A stretch of 64,000 nucleotides of DNA from a bacterium. Lineage in GTDB: Bacteria; SZUA-182; DTGQ01. Shown in pieces: positions 44,564-59,569 of this stretch. Below the pieces are notes generated by a model. The model had not been told where the DNA came from, ran no database searches, and worked only from the letters and a program-made list of their open reading frames with translations. The position numbers and the translations under genes were made by a program. The stretch is from assembly GCA_040755755.1 (NCBI GenBank), contig JBFLZW010000010.1, forward strand, positions 1 to 64,000, read 5' to 3'. Numbering within the stretch: position 1 is the stretch's first letter; each line of letters starts with the position of its first letter.

Positions 44564-44903
44564 TTGTCTATCCTCCTTTTAGACTTGTACTGTTGTTGGT
44601 TAATAAAAATAAGGGATCATTTTGCCTACTATTTCGGATTAATATAAAAAAAGCCGTTACACAGCAATAAGGTGATTAAAATGGACTTGTATACCCTGCG
44701 GTCAAGTTCCACTGAACTATTACTGTCCGCACCGTAAGCCTTTTTCCGGAAATCACCCGATATGGAAAGCAGAGATAGCAGGAGAGATGTGGAGAGGGAG
44801 AAAGCAGGAAAAACTACCGGGAAGGGAAAGGCTGCCTTTTGCAGAACAGGGAAAGGTCCTTTCCCTTCCTGAAGATCGGCAGGATGAAGGAGTAGATGCA
44901 ATT

Positions 44904-46106
44904 ATGAATAACAAGAGCAGGAGCATGAGCGGTCTATGGTTATTGGCATGTCTCTGTATCCTTTCCCTGGCCTGCACGGCAGCGAGAACTGCTGTGGCCG
45001 CGGACCTGTCCAGCAAGGAAAGGCTGGGCAAGCTCATCTATTTCGATGAGCGGCTCTCTGAGCCAAAGGGACAGTCCTGTTCAGCTTGCCATTTTCCGGA
45101 AAATGGTTTTAACGGCGCAGGAGACCCCAATATCGCCGTCTATGAAGGTGCGGTATCCGGCCGGTTCGGTTTTCGCAATCCCCCAAGCTCTGCTTATGCC
45201 TCCTTCAGCCCGCCGTTCCACTTTGGCAGGGAAGAAGGCGAATATATCGGAGGCCAGTTCTGGGACGGCCGGGCAAAAGACCTTGTGGAACAGGCGAAAG
45301 GGCCGTTCCTGAACCCGGTGGAGCAGAATAACCCAAGCGGAGAAGAGGTAGCCAGGAAGGTCTGCCAATCCCCGTATGCTGATCTCTTCAAAGAGGTATA
45401 TGGGCCGAATGCCTGCGATGATCTCACCAGGGCTTACGATTATATAGCCGATGCCATTGCCGCCTATGAGTCCTCCTTTGAGTCGAACCGCTTCAGCTCA
45501 AAGTATGACTGGTACCTTAAAGATCCGGCCCGGTATCCCTTAAGCGAGCAGGAGGCGCGCGGTCGTTTGCTCTTCGAGACCAAAGGCAACTGCTTCTCCT
45601 GCCATCCGAATACGGCGGGGCCTTACTGCGACCAGCCCCTGTTCACCGACTATACCTATGATAATCTCGGTCTGCCGAAGAATCCCGATAATCCCTGGTA
45701 CCGCATGTCTCCTTCTCTTAACCCCGATGGAGAAAACTTTATCGATTACGGGCTCGGAGATACAGTGAAAGATCCTGCCGAAAATGGAAAATTCAAGGTA
45801 CCGACTCTCAGAAACGTTGCCGTTGCACCTCCCTATGGGCATAATGGTCTCTTCAAGACCCTGGAGGAGGTCGTCCATTTCTACAACACGGCCGGTATTC
45901 CGGGTATGTGGCCTTCTCCGGAAGTGCCGGAAAATGTCAATAGAAGCAAAATAGGCGACCTCGGCCTGAGCGAAGAGGAAGAAAAAGACCTGGTTGCCTT
46001 CCTGAAAACCCTGACAGACGGCTACGAACCAACAGACAGGATACAGGAAGGGGAGGGCGGGAAAAAATTACCAGGGATCAGCCTTGAGCGGCAAAGGTTG
46101 CATTGA
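44904..46106 (+). CDS. Di-heme cytochrome c peroxidase (CcpA/MauG family)
   Basis: About 400 residues from ATG 44904, which follows GAAGGAG. It has a signal peptide and two heme-binding motifs, CSACH (about residue 55) and CFSCH (about 230). The order of the parts, with L-G-K-L-I-Y-F-D at the start and P-T-L-R-N-V-A-V near the second heme, is that of bacterial di-heme peroxidases. They reduce hydrogen peroxide to water in the periplasm using cytochrome c. The enzyme suggests exposure to oxygen or peroxide. Its 3' end overlaps the convergent secretin gene by 29 bp. Confidence 0.93.
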   Translation: MNNKSRSMSGLWLLACLCILSLACTAARTAVAADLSSKERLGKLIYFDERLSEPKGQSCSACHFPENGFNGAGDPNIAVYEGAVSGRFGFRNPPSSAYASFSPPFHFGREEGEYIGGQFWDGRAKDLVEQAKGPFLNPVEQNNPSGEEVARKVCQSPYADLFKEVYGPNACDDLTRAYDYIADAIAAYESSFESNRFSSKYDWYLKDPARYPLSEQEARGRLLFETKGNCFSCHPNTAGPYCDQPLFTDYTYDNLGLPKNPDNPWYRMSPSLNPDGENFIDYGLGDTVKDPAENGKFKVPTLRNVAVAPPYGHNGLFKTLEEVVHFYNTAGIPGMWPSPEVPENVNRSKIGDLGLSEEEEKDLVAFLKTLTDGYEPTDRIQEGEGGKKLPGISLERQRLH

Positions 46107-47709
46107 CTATGCGGGGGGTAATTAAAATAAGTACCTCCGAGTCCTCGGTTATTTTATCCTTCTTGCTGAAAATAAGATTGAGAATTGGTATATAACCCAA
46201 GATCGGTACCCGGGTGATCTTGTCGATCTCCCGTTTCTTCAGGAATCCTCCGATGGTGATAGTTTCCTGGTCATTAACCACGACGGTTGTAGTAACCGAG
46301 CGCTTGTTAATCAGGGGAAGACCATTGGCACCTGTCTCGACAAAATCACTCACCTCGGCCGGTTTTATCTTCACGGTAATGGTATTGTCTTCTGAAACAA
46401 AGGGGATGATATTGAGGGTGATCCCGGCCTTTATGGTCTGTACCGTCGTATATGAATAGGTGACCGGGCCGCTGGTGAGGGACACATACTGCTCAAGGCC
46501 GATATTGATGGTGGCCTCCTCCCCATCCATAGTGGTCACGTGCGGTGTAGCTCTGAGCGTGGCCTGGCCTTTCGCAACCAGTTCCTGGAGCTTGGCCGTT
46601 ATCTGATCGGTTACGACGGATGATGAATTGAGGTAGCCGAAAGTTACCCCCAGCTCCTGCATGGACCCGGAAAATTTGCCCGATTGACCTGACCAGTCAA
46701 TACCGAGGTTCTTCTTGGCTTCCGATGAAAGGTCCACAATGATGGCCTCAAGCCTTACCTGCTTGGGCAGGGTATCGACCTTGCGGATGTCGGCGAGTAT
46801 TCTCTCCACCATCTCCGGGGATGCGGTAATGGTGAGCACGTTCCGCTCCTCATTCACCTGAATGGCTGAAGCAAAGGATGGTGAGATGAGCTTTACCAGT
46901 TCCCTGGCCTTGAGGAACTTTGGTTTGACGTATTCAGTCCGGCTTAAGTAATTGAATAGAGGGCTGCGGGAATCAGCCGAGCCGATGAGGTAGTAACCAT
47001 TCATCTTCCTGAAGGTATACCCTCCTGCGCTCAGTATTATCTTGAGTACCTCCTCAAGCGGCAGGTTTTTGTACCGGACGGAAATAAAACCCTGTACCGT
47101 ATCATCGGTAATCAGGCTGATGCCGGTCTCGGTAGCGATATTTCTGATGATTTCCCGCAGGTCGGTATCGTAAAATTCATTGCTCAGGAGTTTTTCCGGT
47201 GTGCTGGAAGAAGAGCCTGCTGTATTGGATGCCGGCTGAGATGCAGGTGTATCTGCCCTGGGGAGGGCTCCGGTTGTCGAGGGCCGATCGTTTTCTCCGG
47301 TAATCTCCTCAATCCTGGTTATATAATTCTGGGCCAGTTCAGTCAGGCTGCTGTTGGGATAATTTTCGGTAATTTCGAGGAATTTTGCTCTGGCTTCTTC
47401 ATATCTTTGCTTTTGATACAGCTCTTTGCCTTTTTTAAAAACCGTATAGTCGCTCGATCTCCAGATTCCCCTCAGAATACCGCCGGATTGGGCCGGGGAA
47501 TGGTGAGCATTCGATGGAGAGCCGCTGGATCGTGATTGAAAATTGACTGACCGCGGGCTGGATTGATACTTGGGGTCGGCAAGGTTTCGATAAGCACAAC
47601 CGGAGAGAGATATCATAGATATCATAAAGGAGAGAGAAAGGTACAAGGTAATGCGCAGGGTATTGGGGAGAGAGAAAAATGGAGAACCTAATTTGCCGCT
47701 TCTGTCCAT
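46078..47709 (-). CDS. Secretin-like outer-membrane lipoprotein (GspD/PilQ superfamily)
   Basis: 543 residues. A lipobox LSGC puts the lipidated cysteine at C38. TPR-like helices (about 88-135, KGKELYQKQRYEEARAKF) and a Ser/Thr/Pro linker precede an STN/N0 domain (about 175-240: L-R-E-I-I-R-N-I-A-T). An N1-type domain and the secretin core follow, with a V-P-I-L-G-Y-I-P motif and V-L-I-L-I-T-P-R at the end. Secretins form gated outer-membrane rings for type II/III secretion or type IV pili. No ATPase, platform or pseudopilin gene is adjacent; instead it ends a cluster of secreted Ig-like genes. The start has GGAG eight bases upstream. Confidence 0.9.
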   Translation of the reverse strand: MDRSGKLGSPFFSLPNTLRITLYLSLSFMISMISLSGCAYRNLADPKYQSSPRSVNFQSRSSGSPSNAHHSPAQSGGILRGIWRSSDYTVFKKGKELYQKQRYEEARAKFLEITENYPNSSLTELAQNYITRIEEITGENDRPSTTGALPRADTPASQPASNTAGSSSSTPEKLLSNEFYDTDLREIIRNIATETGISLITDDTVQGFISVRYKNLPLEEVLKIILSAGGYTFRKMNGYYLIGSADSRSPLFNYLSRTEYVKPKFLKARELVKLISPSFASAIQVNEERNVLTITASPEMVERILADIRKVDTLPKQVRLEAIIVDLSSEAKKNLGIDWSGQSGKFSGSMQELGVTFGYLNSSSVVTDQITAKLQELVAKGQATLRATPHVTTMDGEEATINIGLEQYVSLTSGPVTYSYTTVQTIKAGITLNIIPFVSEDNTITVKIKPAEVSDFVETGANGLPLINKRSVTTTVVVNDQETITIGGFLKKREIDKITRVPILGYIPILNLIFSKKDKITEDSEVLILITPRIVNATFAAQG

Positions 47710-48269
47710 AGTGTAAACTCCATGCTGCTGATATTGTTGCTGTTTTTGTCACTGACTGTGGCTATGATCCGGGTGGAATATTTCTTCTTTCTCATCGAGG
47801 GTTGTTTACCCGATGGCCGGTATGCCTTGACATAGATATTCATCTCGCACGTTTTTGATTGGATTTCTTCGACGGAGGAGCACAGGTTTTTTCCGCTCAT
47901 CCACCGCCGCCGAGGCCCTTGAATATCCGGCGGGGGTGAGCCTGAGGGCGCAATGGCGTAGAATGTGGGAAGATAATCCGCTGCTTCGCTGGAAAGATTT
48001 CCATCAGGAGTTTCTGACCTGAAGCTTATGGTTAGGGGGGGATTATTGGTTTCTCCCGACAGAATAATAGGTATGGTACTGGTGTATACTCCGGGAGATA
48101 TGACAGTATCGAGCTGGAGGGTATCCTGGGTAAGGTGGGCAGCCAGCATTGGCCGCACAGTACCCGTAACCGCCAGGTGTCTGGTATTCAATGCCTGGCC
48201 GCAGGTTGCAGATCGGGCTCCAATAATCAACAAAAACGGAACAATGGTACTAACAATAAGAGTTTTCAT
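47688..48269 (-). CDS. Secreted protein of the secretin-linked family
   Basis: 193 residues with a signal peptide (1-24) and a beta-rich mature part. Near residue 59 it has S-P-G-V-Y-T-S-T-I-P-I-I, close to the P-G-V-Y-E-G-N-I of the 305-residue protein in the same cluster. It overlaps the upstream gene by one base and the downstream secretin by 22 bp, so all three are translated as a unit. I recognise no catalogued family. A role as subunit or adaptor for the secretin is inferred from position only. Confidence 0.78.
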   Translation of the reverse strand: MKTLIVSTIVPFLLIIGARSATCGQALNTRHLAVTGTVRPMLAAHLTQDTLQLDTVISPGVYTSTIPIILSGETNNPPLTISFRSETPDGNLSSEAADYLPTFYAIAPSGSPPPDIQGPRRRWMSGKNLCSSVEEIQSKTCEMNIYVKAYRPSGKQPSMRKKKYSTRIIATVSDKNSNNISSMEFTLWTEAAN

Positions 48270-49912
48270 TATTTAACGGTAAAATTTATCTTGGCTGTTG
48301 CTTTTTCTTTCCCGCCGTAATCGGTCTCGGCAAGGGCCAGGTATTTTCCGGGGATGAGCTTTCTGCCTGTGGTTGCTGTCATTCTTCCCGTTGTTTGCGG
48401 AAGAATGGCCCTGGCTTCAAGTTTAAGATCTATCTGTTCAACCTCATGGTTATACATATCCCTGATGATGACTCTGCCTTTTGGCACAAGGTGCAGCGGG
48501 CTTTTATTCCTGAGCTCCAGAGCAAACTCTGCCTTCCCCCCTGTGCCGTTCGATCGTTTGAACGTAGCTACCTCGGCTGTTGACTCAACCTGCCCCGGGA
48601 TAGCAGTAATCACCTCAACCTGCTTTTTTTCAATCCGCTGTGCTCCGGTATTTCCGGTTCCTTCAATAACAACCAGCGAATATTTATCTCCAGGCTGGGC
48701 CGAAGCAGGCAGGGTAATCGTAAACGGTATACTCTGAGAGAGCCTCGGTCCGATGGTATAATTCATCTCTTGCAGCGCTATCCAGTTTGAAGATGAATAG
48801 GGTGTCGAGCCCTTCTCCTTGACAATGGTTCGTCCATCAGGGCTGTATCCAAGATCTTTCACCGAGAGGGTTATCGTAATCGGCTCCTGGGTAAGATTCG
48901 TGACGGTAAAGACTGAAGACCTCACCCCACCGGCCTGACCCTTGATCTCGATGTTTGTCGGTCTTACTTCGAAGGATTGATTATCAGCCGGCACCCTGGA
49001 GGCGAAAGCCGGGTCTTTGGTAATGGCTATCTTTTGCCTGGCCGAAAGGCTTCGCCTGCCGTATTTTAAGGCAACCATGGCTGTATATTCACCAGGGGCG
49101 AGCGGTTTATTTACTTTCCCCAAAAAAGCCACCCGTGCACCAGGGAAAATTTTTTGGTTTTCATCTTTTTTCCGGTTGAGATCCTTTGATTTCTGTTCTT
49201 CCTTTTCCCTCACTTTCTTTTTTCTCTCAAGCGATTCGGTAGTGAGATGGACACTGGTGACGATCCTGCCTGCGGCATCCTGCAGGGTCACCTGTCCTGT
49301 GGCCGTGAAAACAGCCTCTGATTTATTCACCATAACCGCTTCTATGGCAGGTGAGCCGTCTTCGAGCTTTTTTATCCCGATTCTATCCAGTTCCGCCTGC
49401 TCTATGACCGGTTTTCCCCTGACTTTCAGATGAAGGGTAACGGCATACCTCACCCGGATGGTTATCCCTTTGACCTTTTTCTCCGAGCCGGTTTCAACCA
49501 TTATGGCCGCTGTTTTACTCCCCGAGCTGGTGGCGGGAACCAAAATTTCACCTTTGACCTGGACAATTTCTCCAGCAGGTATGGTGATCTCGGATTTTGC
49601 CAGTTTAATCCATTGGGCACATGAATAGGGATTTTTGCCGACCTCGACAAAATCCATGCTTCCATCCTCTTTTTGCAGAGCATCGAACAGGGTGAGATGG
49701 ACAACGGCATCTTCGTTCGGCGAAGTAGAATAGATTTCAATTTCGAATTCACCCTTTTTATTCGGGGAAAGCTCAAGATCCAAAGTCAGCGGTTTTACCC
49801 CGATACTTCCCGCAGCCTGAGATAATGCAGGATATATCAGGGAAAGGAGGCACAGAAGCAGCAGGAGATAGAGGCTGTATTGTGCATGCCGAAAGGTAGT
49901 TTTTCCTGTCAT
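48269..49912 (-). CDS. Exported tandem Ig-like, chaperone-like protein
   Basis: 547 residues with a signal peptide (1-33). Two homologous halves each start with a strand like S-I-G-V-K-P or S-F-E-V-R-P and carry a P-Y-S-S/C segment followed by a W-I-x-L. They also share a late P-A-T/S-x-x-S/P-G-x-K strand before I-M-V-E or V-V-I-E. Between them lie a further Ig-like segment and a strongly charged Lys/Glu stretch near 230-255. The layout is reminiscent of DUF916-type or pilus-chaperone folds, but no exact family is visible. The start ATG has AAAGG upstream. It is coupled to the next gene by a one-base overlap. Confidence 0.8.
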   Translation of the reverse strand: MTGKTTFRHAQYSLYLLLLLCLLSLIYPALSQAAGSIGVKPLTLDLELSPNKKGEFEIEIYSTSPNEDAVVHLTLFDALQKEDGSMDFVEVGKNPYSCAQWIKLAKSEITIPAGEIVQVKGEILVPATSSGSKTAAIMVETGSEKKVKGITIRVRYAVTLHLKVRGKPVIEQAELDRIGIKKLEDGSPAIEAVMVNKSEAVFTATGQVTLQDAAGRIVTSVHLTTESLERKKKVREKEEQKSKDLNRKKDENQKIFPGARVAFLGKVNKPLAPGEYTAMVALKYGRRSLSARQKIAITKDPAFASRVPADNQSFEVRPTNIEIKGQAGGVRSSVFTVTNLTQEPITITLSVKDLGYSPDGRTIVKEKGSTPYSSSNWIALQEMNYTIGPRLSQSIPFTITLPASAQPGDKYSLVVIEGTGNTGAQRIEKKQVEVITAIPGQVESTAEVATFKRSNGTGGKAEFALELRNKSPLHLVPKGRVIIRDMYNHEVEQIDLKLEARAILPQTTGRMTATTGRKLIPGKYLALAETDYGGKEKATAKINFTVK

Positions 49913-49939
49913 AAGGACCTTTACAAATCGTGGTATTTC

Positions 49940-50012
49940 TCCCGCGGAGACGCTGAGACGCAGAGGATATTATTTTCAGTCATTCTCTGCGCCTCTTGCG
50001 TCTCTGCGGGAG
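49940..50012. repeat. Complete palindrome related to the GxxExxY start region
   Basis: CTCCCGCGGAGACGCTGAGA faces TCTTGCGTCTCTGCGGGAG. The right arm matches 138-180, including an in-place minus-strand ATG ACT GAA AAT. It sits in the 180-bp gap upstream of the tandem Ig gene. Confidence 0.85.
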
Positions 50013-50092
50013 ATCATTCTTCCATCCTTAATAGAAATAAGGAAGCGGGGAGGAGAACTTTCCCCTTCCCCCCTTTCAAATCCCAATTTTAC

Positions 50093-50626
50093 CTAAAGTG
50101 CTGACACCGTTAACGTAATACCGGCGGCATAATCTCCAGCCTGCTGATCGGAAATCTGATCACCTGTCCTTGCCCAACCAAGTATCGAATAGTCCTCAAC
50201 GGTACATGCTCCCTGGCTGCTGAAAAGTGCTCCCACCGGTGCCCAGGTATCGTCCCGGTTCGTATAGCCAAGATCACTGACTTCGTCCTGAACGAGGTAC
50301 TTGGTCTGGAGAGTCGATTGCCCATTCGATGCCGCCAGGTCATCCGCTTTGAATTCAAGGTTGACTATCGTGTTGGTTTCGACCCTGAATATCGAATGAT
50401 TTTTCGGCCCTATCGTCTGGTTGGCCTGTCCGGTAAATGCTCCGAAATTCATATGCTGGGCCACGATATCAATTTGAGCATACTCTGCAACTGTCCCGTT
50501 AACAATGATGTTCTCCACATCAGACTGGGCGAAAGCAGACGAACCGCAAAGCACGACAACTCCTGTCACTACCACAGCAGCAGCGAGGAGAGATAGTAAC
50601 GGTACTCTTTTCTTAACCTGTTTCAT
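50093..50626 (-). CDS. Secreted subunit-like protein A of the secretin cluster
   Basis: 177 residues with a signal peptide (1-33, cleavage after AFA). The mature protein is beta-rich and ends in Q-A-G-D-Y-A-A-G-I-T-L-T-V. It is alignable with the 144-residue neighbour across most of its length: both have a T-V-x-E-Y-A-x-I start, an H-x-E/V-T-N strand and the same A-G-x-Y end. An extra 35 residues contain two cysteine-free loops and one cysteine. AAGGAG precedes the ATG. It looks like a polymer-forming or surface subunit, but that is inference. Confidence 0.8.
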   Translation of the reverse strand: MKQVKKRVPLLSLLAAAVVVTGVVVLCGSSAFAQSDVENIIVNGTVAEYAQIDIVAQHMNFGAFTGQANQTIGPKNHSIFRVETNTIVNLEFKADDLAASNGQSTLQTKYLVQDEVSDLGYTNRDDTWAPVGALFSSQGACTVEDYSILGWARTGDQISDQQAGDYAAGITLTVSAL

Positions 50627-50659
50627 GTATTTCTCTCCTTATCGATCAAGGTCGATATC

Positions 50660-51094
50660 TTACCCGGCCACTGTTATGGTAATTACGGAGCCGTATTCAC
50701 CAGCTTCCTGAGCGGAAATAGCACCGGTTGTTCCCGTGATGGTAACTGAATGGTCCCCGTTGTGCTGGACATCGACATCAATGCTTGATGTACCATCGAT
50801 AGTAACCTCTGTAGTAATAGTACCGCCATTCATATGGGTCAGCGGAGTTGCAGTTACTGATACCGTAGCCGCACAGTTTGTCTCGACATGAATGATGTTC
50901 GTATCGGACAACGATTCATTCGCCGCACCGGAAAAAGCGAGTTCCATCGCTGATAAATCACCAGTGATTTCAGCATATTCCAATACGGTAGCTGTGACAT
51001 TGATTGTCTTGCTATCCAGGTCTACAGCCTTTGACATTCCCGAAAAACCAACTAAGACGATTGCAGCCAGTAATGCAATTACATATTTTTTCAT
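50660..51094 (-). CDS. Secreted subunit-like protein B of the secretin cluster
   Basis: 144 residues with a signal peptide (1-23, cleavage after SKA). The mature 120 residues are nearly all predicted beta strand, rich in Thr, Val and Ile and low in charge, as in pilins and coat proteins. The end reads Q-E-A-G-E-Y-G-S-V-I-T-I-T-V. It is a paralogue of the following 177-residue protein, 33 bp downstream. The ATG is preceded by GAGG. It is probably the major or minor form of one structural subunit. Confidence 0.8.
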   Translation of the reverse strand: MKKYVIALLAAIVLVGFSGMSKAVDLDSKTINVTATVLEYAEITGDLSAMELAFSGAANESLSDTNIIHVETNCAATVSVTATPLTHMNGGTITTEVTIDGTSSIDVDVQHNGDHSVTITGTTGAISAQEAGEYGSVITITVAG

Positions 51095-51248
51095 AGTTTA
51101 TTCCTCTTAGGTAAGATAGTTATTTTAAAAAACTGATATTATTGTTGATTCGCGCAGCATGACAAATTTGAAATTCCTGAATAACCTTGATCTTTCTCAT
51201 CCACCTCCTTTCTCAGCCGGTACGGAAGGCTTTTTGTTGGGCAGAATT

Positions 51249-52166
51249 TCATAGCTCAGGTATACAGGTAATAACAATCTCCCCCCGATAGTCTCCTGCC
51301 GCGTCCTGTAATCCGGTCTTTAATCTGAAACTAAGCTCAGTGGTAACGGTTTTTTCCTTATTATCAGGCTGATGTCCTGATGGCTGTTCGAGAATCACCA
51401 CATCCGATTCGAGGCTGTAATAATTTCCATTGCCCGGGTTCACCGAGAGCCTGTCAGCGGAAATATTACTGTACTTGCCCACAAGGGAAGTGGCATGTGC
51501 CTTGACAATAAATCCATCTTTTGATTTGACCGTAAGAAGAATGGTACTGTCAGCATCGCATTCCTTCCGGGACCGCATACCGGAAAAATGGATCTCCTGA
51601 GATGATAAGGTCACATTGACCATAGTCTCCTTGGTAACCTCCTCCATCTTGGAGGAGGGGGCAAATTCGGCCCCTGGCACCGGCGCATCGATAATTAACC
51701 TTACGTGGATGGTCGGGATTGTCATGTCCATATCGACTGAGTAGATATTCCCCTCATAAACGCCCGGTTTTTCATGGCCGGTAGCCATGTACCTGAACTG
51801 TATGGCCGCCACATCGAGAGGAGGGGGCTCTCCCCCATCACCTTTTCCGACAAGCCTTGGCAACTCAAGGCTTTCAAATCCATTGGTGTATGGAGTTTTC
51901 ATCAGCAGCCGATCAGGCATTATGTTCCCTGACGGACCGGTTACTATACCGGCCAGATAGCTGAAAACCCATCCTCCGGTGCCTGACTGAAGAACAACCC
52001 GCACGGCTGATATATCAGGTTCAATCATGCCCGTCTGGCCGCTGATAAAATGGAAGCTGATAAGGTCATGAGAGACGGTTATCTTGATACCCGGTTCTGT
52101 CGAACACCAGGCGGTTGACATTGTCAAACAAAGATAAAGCACAACGCCGGGGATTTTCAGGCGCAT
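51249..52166 (-). CDS. Secreted two-domain protein heading the secretin cluster
   Basis: 305 residues with a signal peptide (1-21). Two similar beta domains, about 27-160 and 180-305, each have I-S-F/H-F-S-G, G-x-I-x-x-D-R-L and a G-x-Y-x-G-x-I strand; the last one ends A-G-D-Y-R-G-E-I-V-I-T. This signature is shared with the two subunit-like proteins. It may be the tip, base or adhesin of the same assembly. AAAAAGGATTATTC precedes the ATG. The gene is the promoter-proximal member of a minus-strand series down to the secretin. Confidence 0.8.
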   Translation of the reverse strand: MRLKIPGVVLYLCLTMSTAWCSTEPGIKITVSHDLISFHFISGQTGMIEPDISAVRVVLQSGTGGWVFSYLAGIVTGPSGNIMPDRLLMKTPYTNGFESLELPRLVGKGDGGEPPPLDVAAIQFRYMATGHEKPGVYEGNIYSVDMDMTIPTIHVRLIIDAPVPGAEFAPSSKMEEVTKETMVNVTLSSQEIHFSGMRSRKECDADSTILLTVKSKDGFIVKAHATSLVGKYSNISADRLSVNPGNGNYYSLESDVVILEQPSGHQPDNKEKTVTTELSFRLKTGLQDAAGDYRGEIVITCIPEL

Positions 52167-56620: not shown

Positions 56621-57241
56621 GCGACGTTCCTTTAGGATCGTCTCTCCCGTTCAAAGATGATTAAGGAAAAAAATTTTTTACCCCTGAGCTTTATAAGCTA
56701 TCAAATTTATCGTATCTTTATTGCAAAATACCGCCGATCATAATGGATTTGAAAAATTCTGTCCTCCAGAAATCCCCTATTATTATGGCGAGAGAGAAAA
56801 AGTTTAGCATACAACGGCAGAAATAGCTATCCAGGTTACGAATGTATGCTCTATTCAAGGAAATTCGGCGATGAAATGCTGTATAAAGGTTTCTGTTGCA
56901 CTATAATAATGAACTGAATTTTTGAATTTGACGCGCTTATTTAAAGTTAGTATATTGTTAATAATAGAAATATGCGCTTGTATATTGGTCAATTACCTGT
57001 TCCCGGAGGTTCTCGACAAAACATCTTACATGTATCCCAAATTAAAGGAGATAGAATCTACAAAAAAGGTATCAATTTCCGGTTTATTTTTATCATTATC
57101 AACCACAATATTTATGGCACTAACGAGTTAGGAGGTAAAACTATCGTACTTGAAAAATCCATAAGCGAATTATGTTAAGCTGCCCCAGCATCAGCGAATA
57201 TCCTCTCTATGTATAGGTTTTTGAGTGGGAAGGAAGGGAAA
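56621..57241. other. Intergenic region between divergent genes
   Basis: A 620-bp AT-rich gap between the ABC exporter and the multiheme cytochrome. A 69-codon plus-strand frame at 56922-57131 could encode two membrane helices, but its TTG start has no SD, so I do not call it a gene. Nothing else is recognisable. Confidence 0.5.
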
Positions 57242-59569
57242 ATGAAAACCATGAAAAAAATGTTAGTCATGTATGCATCCTGTGGGCTGGTAGCACTATT
57301 GGCAGGAGTATTGACCACGTATATTCCTTCTGAGGCGACTGTTCATGATACCCACCTGAGGAAGAGTGGTTCCCTGGATCCAAGAGACCCTCGTGGGGCG
57401 AATCTTACCTGTACTGACTGCCACCAGGCACATGGCTGCTCGAATGGTGCCCCGGGCATGCTGAAAGATTGTTTACCATTAGCTCAAACTACCATCTGTG
57501 ACCCCTGCCATAGTCCGGGCGGTGCCTTCGATGGCGCGAATGATCCCGTGATTGGAGCCAAGGCTCATTGGCGGGATGGAGGGGTGTATGATTCGGGCCA
57601 GGGACGGCAGGTATTAAAGCCCGGCCTGGAAAACTGGTGTGCCGGCTGCCACGATGATGGCAATGCAACCTGTCTCGGGGTGTCGGCTCCGAACGTAATG
57701 GGGGATAATGCCACCTACGGCTATAATATCACCGGCCATAAGATTGCCTGCACTTCCTGCCACAATGCAGCCGGGAGGCACATGGATGGTCAGGCCAGAA
57801 CCTACACCCATGACTCGAATCCCTGGGATACCGACGATTCTCAGAACTACCAGAATGGGTATCGGCTTGCAGCGCGGATGATCATCCCCTTATTCACCGG
57901 CCCTCAGGCAGGAACCGTTCAGGACCGGTACGCTCTCTGCTATGGGTGCCATGATTTTGCCAAACTTTTGGGAGCAACCTCACCCTATCAGACCAATTTT
58001 CAGGACGATTCGATCAACCGTCATGTGTACCACTTAAGCTCAGGGCGCACGGCCTGGGATTCTGACTGGGATTATTTACAGGTGCCGGATGAGATCATTA
58101 TCGACAATACGGGTGCGGCCTTTTCGGGTGAAGGATGGCAGATAGACAATACCCTCACCGGGTATTATGGAACCGATTATGCCTGGCATCTTGCAGGCAG
58201 TGGAAGCTGCACGGCGGCCTGGACTCCGCAGATTCCCATGAATAGAGCCTACAAGGTCTATGTCCGCTGGCCTGTTTCCTCGAGCTGGGCCAGCGATGCA
58301 CAGTATACCATTGTCTATAATGGCGGAAGCATCGTACAAACCCTCAATCAGCAAATCGGCGGAGGAATGTGGAATCTCCTTGGCTCTTTCTCCTTTATTC
58401 AGGGGACCTCCGGATATGTCCAGCTTTCAGATCTGGCCAGCGGCCCTGTGGCTGCCGATGCGGTCAGGTTCGGCGACCCTATTATGGATTCCCGGATCAG
58501 TTGCCCGGCCTGTCATAATGTGCATGGATCTTCCGATCCGGCCATGATTCGCCACGGGGAGCTTATCAGCACCCCCGGCACTCAGGACAAGTCGCCAGCC
58601 TTGAGCTTTCGCTGGTACAAGGAGGATGGCTATACTCCAACCATTTTTGGCGATGAGAGCCGCTTTGGCGATATGCCTGTCCTGGGTGGTGTCGGAGGCG
58701 GAAACCTGGAAGACAGCAAGGTCTGTGCCGGATGCCATGCCGGACCGGCACCGATCAAATATGACCGGGTTTATCAGACCGTGGCCATGCCGCAAGGGTC
58801 CTGGGCCAAACCTTCTCTTCCTCCTTCGGTGCGGCTTTTGACTCCCGGACCGGGCAGCAGTGAGGTAGCAGTGGACACTAATCTCAGCTTCCTCCTCCTT
58901 TCCAATGGAGAGAATGACCTTGATCTGACCTCTGTTACCATATCCCTGACGGGTACACTTTCTTACTCCCAGACATATCATTTCGGGGACAGCCCGCTGG
59001 TGATTACTCCGGTATCCGGCAGATCTCAGTGTTATACGGTGGTCGTAAATCCCGAGTGCAATTTCGGCGATCAGGAAACAATCACCGTGACAATATCGGC
59101 TCAGGATATAGCTGGCCACAGCCTGACATCTCCCTCCTGGTCTTTTGAGGCGGGGATATCGTCTCCTGTTATCTGGAGGAGCCCAATGGGAGTGCATTCG
59201 GAAAGTCTCTTCTACTCCCCGGAACGGTTGATCGATGATCATCCGGAGACGGAAAATGTTGAATCTCCTTTCCCTGATCACTGGGTGATCTATGATTTGG
59301 GACAGAGCTGTCAGGTAGGCCAGATCCGTCTTCTCCTTTCATCTTCCAGTGTTCGGCTGTGGACGATCTGGGTGGGTGATGATCCCGCTGCCTTTGGATC
59401 TGCGGTCAAGACGGATTGGCCGGCAGCAGTGACAGGCGATCCGCCCGAACTTCCTCAGTGGGTGAGTACTTCTTTTCCTCCCGTACAGGGAAGATACCTG
59501 AAAATCTTCACTGGAAGAGGGTATTTATCCAAAGACACCATCAGGGAAATAGATTTTGCTGAAAACTAA
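57242..59569 (+). CDS. Secreted seven-heme cytochrome c with golvesin-like, Ig-like and F5/8C-like domains
   Basis: 775 residues from ATG 57242, behind GGAAGGAAGGGAAA. After a signal peptide come five CXXCH motifs: CTDCH, CDPCH, CAGCH, CTSCH and CYGCH. A beta-rich domain of about 130 residues (GYYGTDYAWH through ADAVRFGD) matches the golvesin C-terminal type and is inserted before two more hemes (CPACH and CAGCH). The C-terminal 240 residues hold an Ig-like domain and a discoidin-like one ending W-x-x-T/S-x-F-P-P-V-Q-G-R-Y-L-K-I. It is probably an extracellular electron-transfer protein with carbohydrate-binding modules. No other heme gene is adjacent. Confidence 0.9.
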   Translation: MKTMKKMLVMYASCGLVALLAGVLTTYIPSEATVHDTHLRKSGSLDPRDPRGANLTCTDCHQAHGCSNGAPGMLKDCLPLAQTTICDPCHSPGGAFDGANDPVIGAKAHWRDGGVYDSGQGRQVLKPGLENWCAGCHDDGNATCLGVSAPNVMGDNATYGYNITGHKIACTSCHNAAGRHMDGQARTYTHDSNPWDTDDSQNYQNGYRLAARMIIPLFTGPQAGTVQDRYALCYGCHDFAKLLGATSPYQTNFQDDSINRHVYHLSSGRTAWDSDWDYLQVPDEIIIDNTGAAFSGEGWQIDNTLTGYYGTDYAWHLAGSGSCTAAWTPQIPMNRAYKVYVRWPVSSSWASDAQYTIVYNGGSIVQTLNQQIGGGMWNLLGSFSFIQGTSGYVQLSDLASGPVAADAVRFGDPIMDSRISCPACHNVHGSSDPAMIRHGELISTPGTQDKSPALSFRWYKEDGYTPTIFGDESRFGDMPVLGGVGGGNLEDSKVCAGCHAGPAPIKYDRVYQTVAMPQGSWAKPSLPPSVRLLTPGPGSSEVAVDTNLSFLLLSNGENDLDLTSVTISLTGTLSYSQTYHFGDSPLVITPVSGRSQCYTVVVNPECNFGDQETITVTISAQDIAGHSLTSPSWSFEAGISSPVIWRSPMGVHSESLFYSPERLIDDHPETENVESPFPDHWVIYDLGQSCQVGQIRLLLSSSSVRLWTIWVGDDPAAFGSAVKTDWPAAVTGDPPELPQWVSTSFPPVQGRYLKIFTGRGYLSKDTIREIDFAEN

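What the first reader, a model, noticed from the sequence alone, without database searches (positions are those of the whole stretch)
46078..52166. Secretin-like lipoprotein clustered with a tandem Ig chaperone-like protein and a family of secreted subunits
Seen: six minus-strand genes, all with export signals, lie in one series. The last three overlap (one and 22 bases). Three proteins end in the same strand, A-G-D/E-Y-x-x-x-I-T/V-x-T (177, 144 and 305 residues), and the 305- and 193-residue ones contain P-G-V-Y variants. The 305- and 547-residue proteins each have two internally similar halves. Known: secretins normally go with an ATPase and platform proteins, and chaperone-like Ig proteins with an usher. 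Neither set is here. Inference: this could be a new surface-structure assembly locus that uses a secretin in place of an usher.
Basis: partly seen in the sequence, partly recalled or inferred. Interest (0 to 1): 0.8.

Follow-up and report, generated by a model that had tools for sequence, protein, structure and literature searches.

The report
Secretin replaces usher in pilus locus
Six neighbouring genes appear to build a surface fibre from the pilin-type subunits and periplasmic chaperone normally served by an 'usher' pore, but here the outer-membrane gate is a secretin from a separate branch of that family, a combination I found in ten of the searched genomes and in no held paper.

Summary
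All six minus-strand genes (46078-52166) are at the stated coordinates, and orthologues of all six lie in the same order in a genome whose chaperone is only about 42% identical (L033). The 547-aa protein is two fused WxLIP/alternative-type chaperone units. The 144- and 177-aa proteins are chaperone-usher-type pilins: the AlphaFold2 model of the 144-aa one (pLDDT 89) matches CfaB, PapG, Csu and Fim pilins in the PDB. The 305-aa protein is two pilin domains in one chain. The 543-aa protein is a self-lipidated secretin.

The decisive evidence is comparative. Across 55 sampled genomes, single-unit relatives of the chaperone are typically followed by a roughly 900-aa outer-membrane protein; the one modelled has FimD/PapC as its top 16 PDB fold matches. 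Fused two-unit relatives are followed by a secretin instead (12 loci), never by an usher-like gene. The 13 linked secretins form one clade (99/97) apart from the T2SS, type IV pilus and Tad secretins of the same genomes. No usher (PF00577) is in the genome, and no secretion ATPase or platform gene is on the window's 163.6-kb contig.

Fibre assembly itself is inferred, not shown.

The parts
51249..52166 (-). 305-aa exported protein made of two fused pilin-like domains; candidate tip or adhesin subunit
   Evidence: Halves homologous to each other (hhalign 99.0%, E 2.5e-18) and each to the subunit family (E 4e-7 and 4e-14); C-terminal A-G-D-Y strand; orthologues first in order in L033, L022, L037, L021
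50660..51094 (-). 144-aa exported pilin-like subunit with N-terminal extension (donor-strand candidate) and C-terminal A-G-E-Y strand
   Evidence: AlphaFold2 pLDDT 89; Foldseek top hits CfaB E 5e-6, then PapG pilin domain, Csu, FimG; family profile hits CfaB E 9e-4
50093..50626 (-). 177-aa exported pilin-like subunit, paralogue of the 144-aa protein
   Evidence: Family alignments A4 and A3 match by hhalign 98.9%, E 3.5e-17, signal peptides included; orthologues in L018, L033, L021
48269..49912 (-). 547-aa periplasmic tandem chaperone: two WxLIP/alternative-chaperone units (about residues 30-305 and 306-547)
   Evidence: PF06030 E 1.3e-9, PF11797 E 4.9e-6; profile hits solved WxLIP 9i1y E 3e-9; units homologous E 3.7e-27; single-unit homologues match EcpB/EcpE E 1.6e-7
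47688..48269 (-). 193-aa exported accessory protein of unknown fold, its gene overlapping those of the chaperone and secretin
   Evidence: Orthologues in L018 (49%) and L033 (28%) in the same position; overlaps chaperone gene by 1 base and secretin gene by 22; not assigned to the subunit family
46078..47709 (-). 543-aa secretin lipoprotein: lipobox, short TPR/BamD-like stretch, N0, one N1-type domain, secretin domain
   Evidence: PF00263 E 4e-38, N0 and Secretin_N weaker; below the curated cut-offs of PilQ, GspD, SctC, MshL and HofQ; in a clade of 13 chaperone-linked secretins, support 99/97

Best explanation
The locus encodes a surface-fibre assembly pathway in which a dedicated secretin does the job of the outer-membrane usher. 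Sec exports all parts. In the periplasm the fused two-unit chaperone binds the 144- and 177-aa pilins, and perhaps the two-domain 305-aa protein as tip, by lending them a missing strand. At a secretin ring (a lipoprotein, so probably self-targeting) the N-terminal extension of one subunit replaces the chaperone strand in the next, and the growing fibre passes out through the pore. Folding energy of strand exchange would drive this, as in chaperone-usher pili, so no dedicated ATPase is needed. Shown by computation: families, folds, conserved order, replacement of usher by secretin, and separate secretin ancestry. Inferred: strand exchange, tip role of the 305-aa protein, fibre formation, energy source, and why the chaperone is doubled (possibly one unit holds the incoming subunit and the other the last assembled one or the secretin, making up for the usher's missing plug and C-terminal domains).
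For: Subunit fold = chaperone-usher pilin (profile hit to CfaB). Tandem chaperone homologous to WxLIP; its single-unit relatives to EcpB/EcpE and, weakly, to PapD-type chaperones, with reversed-sequence controls null for the PapD-type comparison. Single-unit chaperone loci: 39 followed by an ORF of at least 690 aa on the same strand, 0 by a secretin; members match E. coli ushers (92.6%, E 4e-7; 96.1%, E 3e-9; reversed controls null), and a model of one has FimD/PapC as its 16 best PDB matches, E 1e-19. Two-unit chaperone loci: secretin adjacent in 12, usher in none. The 13 linked secretins are monophyletic, 99/97 and in all 200 bootstrap trees, against 23 other secretins of the same genomes. 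No PF00577 usher in the genome; no PF00437 ATPase or PF00482 platform on the 163.6-kb contig.
Against: No experiment, and no complex could be modelled. Secretins normally work with an ATPase, and the genome has 12 PF00437 matches and 12 PF00482 matches elsewhere that could act in trans. In the G054/G330 lineage, type IV pilus pilB/pilT/pilC genes lie about 7-10 kb from the locus, on the opposite strand. One two-unit chaperone (L020, a 7.9-kb contig) has no secretin beside it; in L073 the secretin is two genes away on the other strand; the G007 copy is split by a frameshift or stop. The usher model has low confidence (pLDDT 61). The 193-aa protein is unexplained.
Confidence: 0.7

Rival explanations
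1. A type II-like secretion branch: the secretin exports already folded beta-sandwich proteins one by one (an S-layer or surface coat), driven by an ATPase and pseudopilus encoded elsewhere in the genome.
For: The genome holds ATPases and platforms at other loci; secretins usually work with them; G054-type genomes have pilBTC nearby.
Against: These secretins form their own clade, apart from the genome's T2SS/T4P/Tad secretins, have only N0 plus one N1-type domain, and come with a strand-donor type chaperone and pilin-fold subunits, which T2SS substrates do not need.
Confidence: 0.15
2. A non-fibrous envelope complex: the chaperone and subunits form a periplasmic or surface scaffold around the secretin, like the WxL/WxLIP cell-surface complexes of Gram-positive bacteria, without polymerisation.
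For: Homology of the chaperone to WxLIP, which is reported to pair with WxL proteins on the surface (PMC10599100).
Against: No WxL domain (PF13731) was found in the subunits; the chaperone has no C-terminal membrane helix; the subunit fold and N-terminal extension resemble polymerising pilins, and the sister loci carry usher-type proteins.
Confidence: 0.1
3. Chance neighbours: a stray secretin beside a usual chaperone-usher remnant, with no functional link.
For: Some loci are broken or lack the secretin (G007, L020).
Against: Ten genomes have the pair within 0.7-2.8 kb, where random placement gives about 0.5-2% per genome; one clade of secretins; overlapping genes in the window.
Confidence: 0.04

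Closest known systems
Chaperone-usher pathway, alternative (alpha) branch: CFA/I (CfaB), E. coli common pilus (EcpA-EcpE)
   Same: Pilin fold and profile; chaperone family related to EcpB/EcpE; a two-domain tip-like subunit; several small exported subunits in one operon
   Different: No usher; a secretin occupies its place; the chaperone is two fused units
WxL / WxLIP surface-protein clusters of Firmicutes (DUF916-DUF3324)
   Same: The chaperone is homologous to WxLIP (PF06030/PF11797; PDB 9i1y); small beta-rich partners in the same operon
   Different: Two fused units, no membrane anchor, no WxL domains, and an outer-membrane pore is present
Secretins of type II secretion, type IV pili and Tad (GspD, PilQ, RcpA)
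   Same: Secretin core with N0/N1 domains and a secretin signature (VPILGYIPILNLIF)
   Different: Below all curated cut-offs for named classes; own clade; no ATPase or platform in the locus or on the contig
Usher-containing sister loci found here (e.g. L100, L024, L102, L077)
   Same: Same chaperone family (one unit) and same subunit family, same order
   Different: A roughly 900-aa usher-like barrel follows the chaperone instead of a secretin

Membership tests
Chaperone-usher pilus system | Outer-membrane usher (PF00577 or fold equivalent) in the locus or genome | tested here: not met
   No PF00577 in G000 or the other secretin-type genomes; no large barrel ORF in the locus
Chaperone-usher pilus system | Pilin subunits with the strand-exchange Ig-like fold | tested here: met
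   AlphaFold2 model of the 144-aa subunit; Foldseek CfaB, PapG, Csu, FimG
Chaperone-usher pilus system | Two-domain periplasmic chaperone of the PapD superfamily | tested here: inconclusive
   No PF00345 hit; single-unit relatives match EcpB/EcpE E 1.6e-7 and PapD-type E 1.8e-4, but the window's own tandem family alone does not reach significance
Chaperone-usher pilus system | Donor-strand exchange and fibre formation | not testable with these tools
   Needs complex prediction or experiment
Type II secretion / type IV pilus / Tad | Secretin of the named class above its curated cut-off | tested here: not met
   Best PilQ 174 bits against a cut-off of 284; GspD 163 against 351
Type II secretion / type IV pilus / Tad | Assembly ATPase (PF00437) and platform protein (PF00482) in the locus | tested here: not met
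   None on contig C10, 163.6 kb; in G054/G330 pilBTC lie about 7-10 kb away
Type II secretion / type IV pilus / Tad | Subunits with class III (prepilin) signal | tested here: not met
   By inspection the subunits have ordinary Sec signal peptides; no dedicated program was run
WxL/WxLIP cluster | WxLIP-type two-Ig protein | tested here: met
   PF06030 above cut-off (38.6 against 27.3), PF11797 just below (27.0 against 28.9)
WxL/WxLIP cluster | WxL-domain proteins and a C-terminal membrane helix on WxLIP | tested here: not met
   No WxL Pfam match in any subunit; the chaperone ends without a hydrophobic C-terminal helix (by inspection)

The most novel reading that the evidence does not exclude
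A new way of putting strand-exchanged pili on a diderm surface: a chaperone-secretin pathway that arose once by exchange of the usher for a secretin together with doubling of the chaperone, and that is spread over several distant lineages. To my knowledge it would be the first secretin that extrudes a donor-strand fibre without an ATPase.
Probability: 0.6. Interest if true: 0.9.

Novelty: new variant of a known kind. Interest (0 to 1): 0.8.

Why it matters
Secretins and ushers are treated as the gates of unrelated machines: secretins with ATPase-driven type IV filament systems, ushers with ATP-free strand-exchange pili. Here the two gates occupy the same slot beside the same chaperone and subunit families. 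That makes it testable which parts of an usher are truly needed for strand exchange (plug, N- and C-terminal domains), whether a secretin can work without an ATPase, and how the Gram-positive WxL/WxLIP complexes relate to Gram-negative pili. It also reveals a widely spread, apparently unannotated surface system in little-studied bacteria.

Tried and rejected
Ordinary GspD/PilQ/Tad secretin: rejected by NCBIfam cut-offs and the tree. Usher hidden in the genome: PF00577 absent. ATPase or platform nearby: none on the contig. The 193-aa protein as a fourth subunit: not supported once signal peptides were removed (hhalign 3%). Mapping a subunit-anchoring arginine from EcpB/CsuC (PMC4654587) onto the chaperone: ambiguous. 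PDB profile searches with the 177-aa and 305-aa families found nothing significant. The window's own tandem units do not match PapD-type or Ecp chaperones on their own. Literature searches for a secretin paired with an usher-type chaperone, WxL or DUF916 found nothing relevant; only open-licence PMC papers are held. The usher-type model is of low confidence, so its support rests on Foldseek ranking and sequence profiles, not on detailed geometry.
Full report
What is there. The six minus-strand ORFs exist exactly as described. Upstream of them is a long intergenic region; downstream the secretin gene runs convergently into a di-haem cytochrome c peroxidase gene (44787-46106, overlap 29 bases). 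The window is bases 1-64000 of contig C10 (163.6 kb) of a 5.26-Mb draft genome with 7 secretins.

The secretin. PF00263 E 4e-38 with weaker N0, STN and Secretin_N matches; lipobox LSGC by inspection and a short TPR/BamD-like stretch. It scores far below the curated cut-offs for PilQ, GspD, SctC, MshL and HofQ. In a maximum-likelihood tree of 36 secretins, the 13 encoded beside chaperones of this family form one clade (99/97, all 200 bootstrap trees), excluding 23 other secretins of the same genomes; for the window genome these include a T2SS/type IV pilus-type cluster (L025) and a Tad-type cluster (L026). Long-branched rows (L134, L146) and low fill for L021 are caveats.

The Ig protein. It matches the WxL-interacting protein family (PF06030 1.3e-9, PF11797 4.9e-6), and its profile finds the solved WxLIP 9i1y/9i25 at 3e-9. 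Its two halves are homologous units (E 3.7e-27). Single-unit relatives align with the E. coli alternative chaperones EcpB/EcpE (93.9%, E 1.6e-7, 173 columns) and, less well, with nine PapD-type chaperones (48.7%, E 1.8e-4, 204 columns); a reversed-sequence control for the PapD set was null. The window's tandem family alone does not reach significance against either, so the chaperone reading passes through the single-unit family. WxLIP is reported to bind its WxL partner, with a beta strand predicted to insert into it (PMC10599100).

The subunits. The 144-aa protein modelled at pLDDT 89. Its best PDB matches are the CFA/I major pilin CfaB (E 5e-6), followed by the PapG pilin domain, Csu, FimG, FimF and PapE; an independent sequence profile also ranks CfaB first (E 9e-4). 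The 177-aa protein is its paralogue and the 305-aa protein is two such domains in tandem.

The comparison that decides. A profile of the Ig protein found relatives in 55 of 386 sampled genomes. I read the neighbourhood of nearly all. Single-unit proteins (mostly 250-400 aa) are preceded by small subunits and usually followed by an ORF of 690-1600 aa: 39 cases, and never by a secretin. Thirty-one of the 41 such large ORFs found beside chaperones are linked to one another by BLAST. Subsets match E. coli ushers by profile (E 4e-7 and 3e-9; reversed controls null). A model of L100 (pLDDT 61) shows about 6 strands, a plug-like sandwich, about 19 strands and two C-terminal sandwiches, the usher layout, and its 16 best PDB matches are all FimD or PapC (E down to 1e-19). 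Two-unit proteins (519-580 aa) are followed by, or next to, a secretin: window, L018, L021, L022, L033, L036, L037, L071, L072, L074, L080, L089; in L073 it is two genes away on the other strand; L019 and L087 end at contig edges; L020 is the one exception, on a 7.9-kb contig. None is followed by an usher-type ORF (one protein over 500 aa, L086, is followed by one but holds a single unit). The Fisher test on the automatic counts gives p about 5e-9, which ignores relatedness. Thus chaperone doubling and replacement of the usher by a secretin go together.

Energy and partners. PF00437 and PF00482 occur 12 times each in the genome, but not on contig C10, and PF00577 is absent. In G054/G330 a pilB-pilT-pilC group lies about 7-10 kb away, so help in trans cannot be excluded.

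Mechanism. The best-supported reading is a chaperone-secretin pathway: strand-lending chaperone, pilins with N-terminal extensions, two-domain tip-like protein, and secretin as gate. The families, folds, order and replacement are shown by computation; strand exchange, polymerisation, the role of the second chaperone unit and independence of ATP are inference. Rivals (ATPase in trans, non-fibrous complex, chance) are less likely but not all excluded.

Novelty. The parts are of known kinds and the combination is not described in the literature I could search, so I file it as a new variant of the chaperone-usher kind that fails that family's defining feature, the usher.

Noticed in passing
window 49925-50025 (between the 177- and 547-aa genes): A roughly 95-bp near-palindromic repeat (REP/BIME-like) with dozens of dispersed copies in the genome at 75-95% identity, on both strands and at several contig ends.
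   Followed up: partly
L022:4682-6484, L037:12874-14676, L074:2109-3911: A 600-aa protein directly after the secretin: N0/N1-like secretin start, a degraded secretin region and a further beta-rich C-terminal part; perhaps a partner or cap of the secretin in that lineage.
   Followed up: partly
L072:7062-8252 and L073:11214-12491: In two other lineages a 396-425-aa exported protein that may end in an outer-membrane strand follows the chaperone-linked secretin; not analysed further.
   Followed up: no
L100:9502-12543, L024:9487-12489, L102:5292-8051 and about 28 linked ORFs: A widespread, divergent usher-like family, not flagged by PF00577 in the members scanned, with Cu-amine-oxidase-N-like or Ig-like N-termini and CarboxypepD/SdrD_B C-terminal domains, paired with single-unit WxLIP-like chaperones.
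   Followed up: partly
L021:6838-8295 (G007): The secretin gene of this relative is split by a frameshift or stop; sequencing error or pseudogene not decided.
   Followed up: no
window 57209-59569: A 786-aa protein with a golvesin C-terminal domain and c-type haem motifs (Cytochrome_C7, doubled CXXCH).
   Followed up: no
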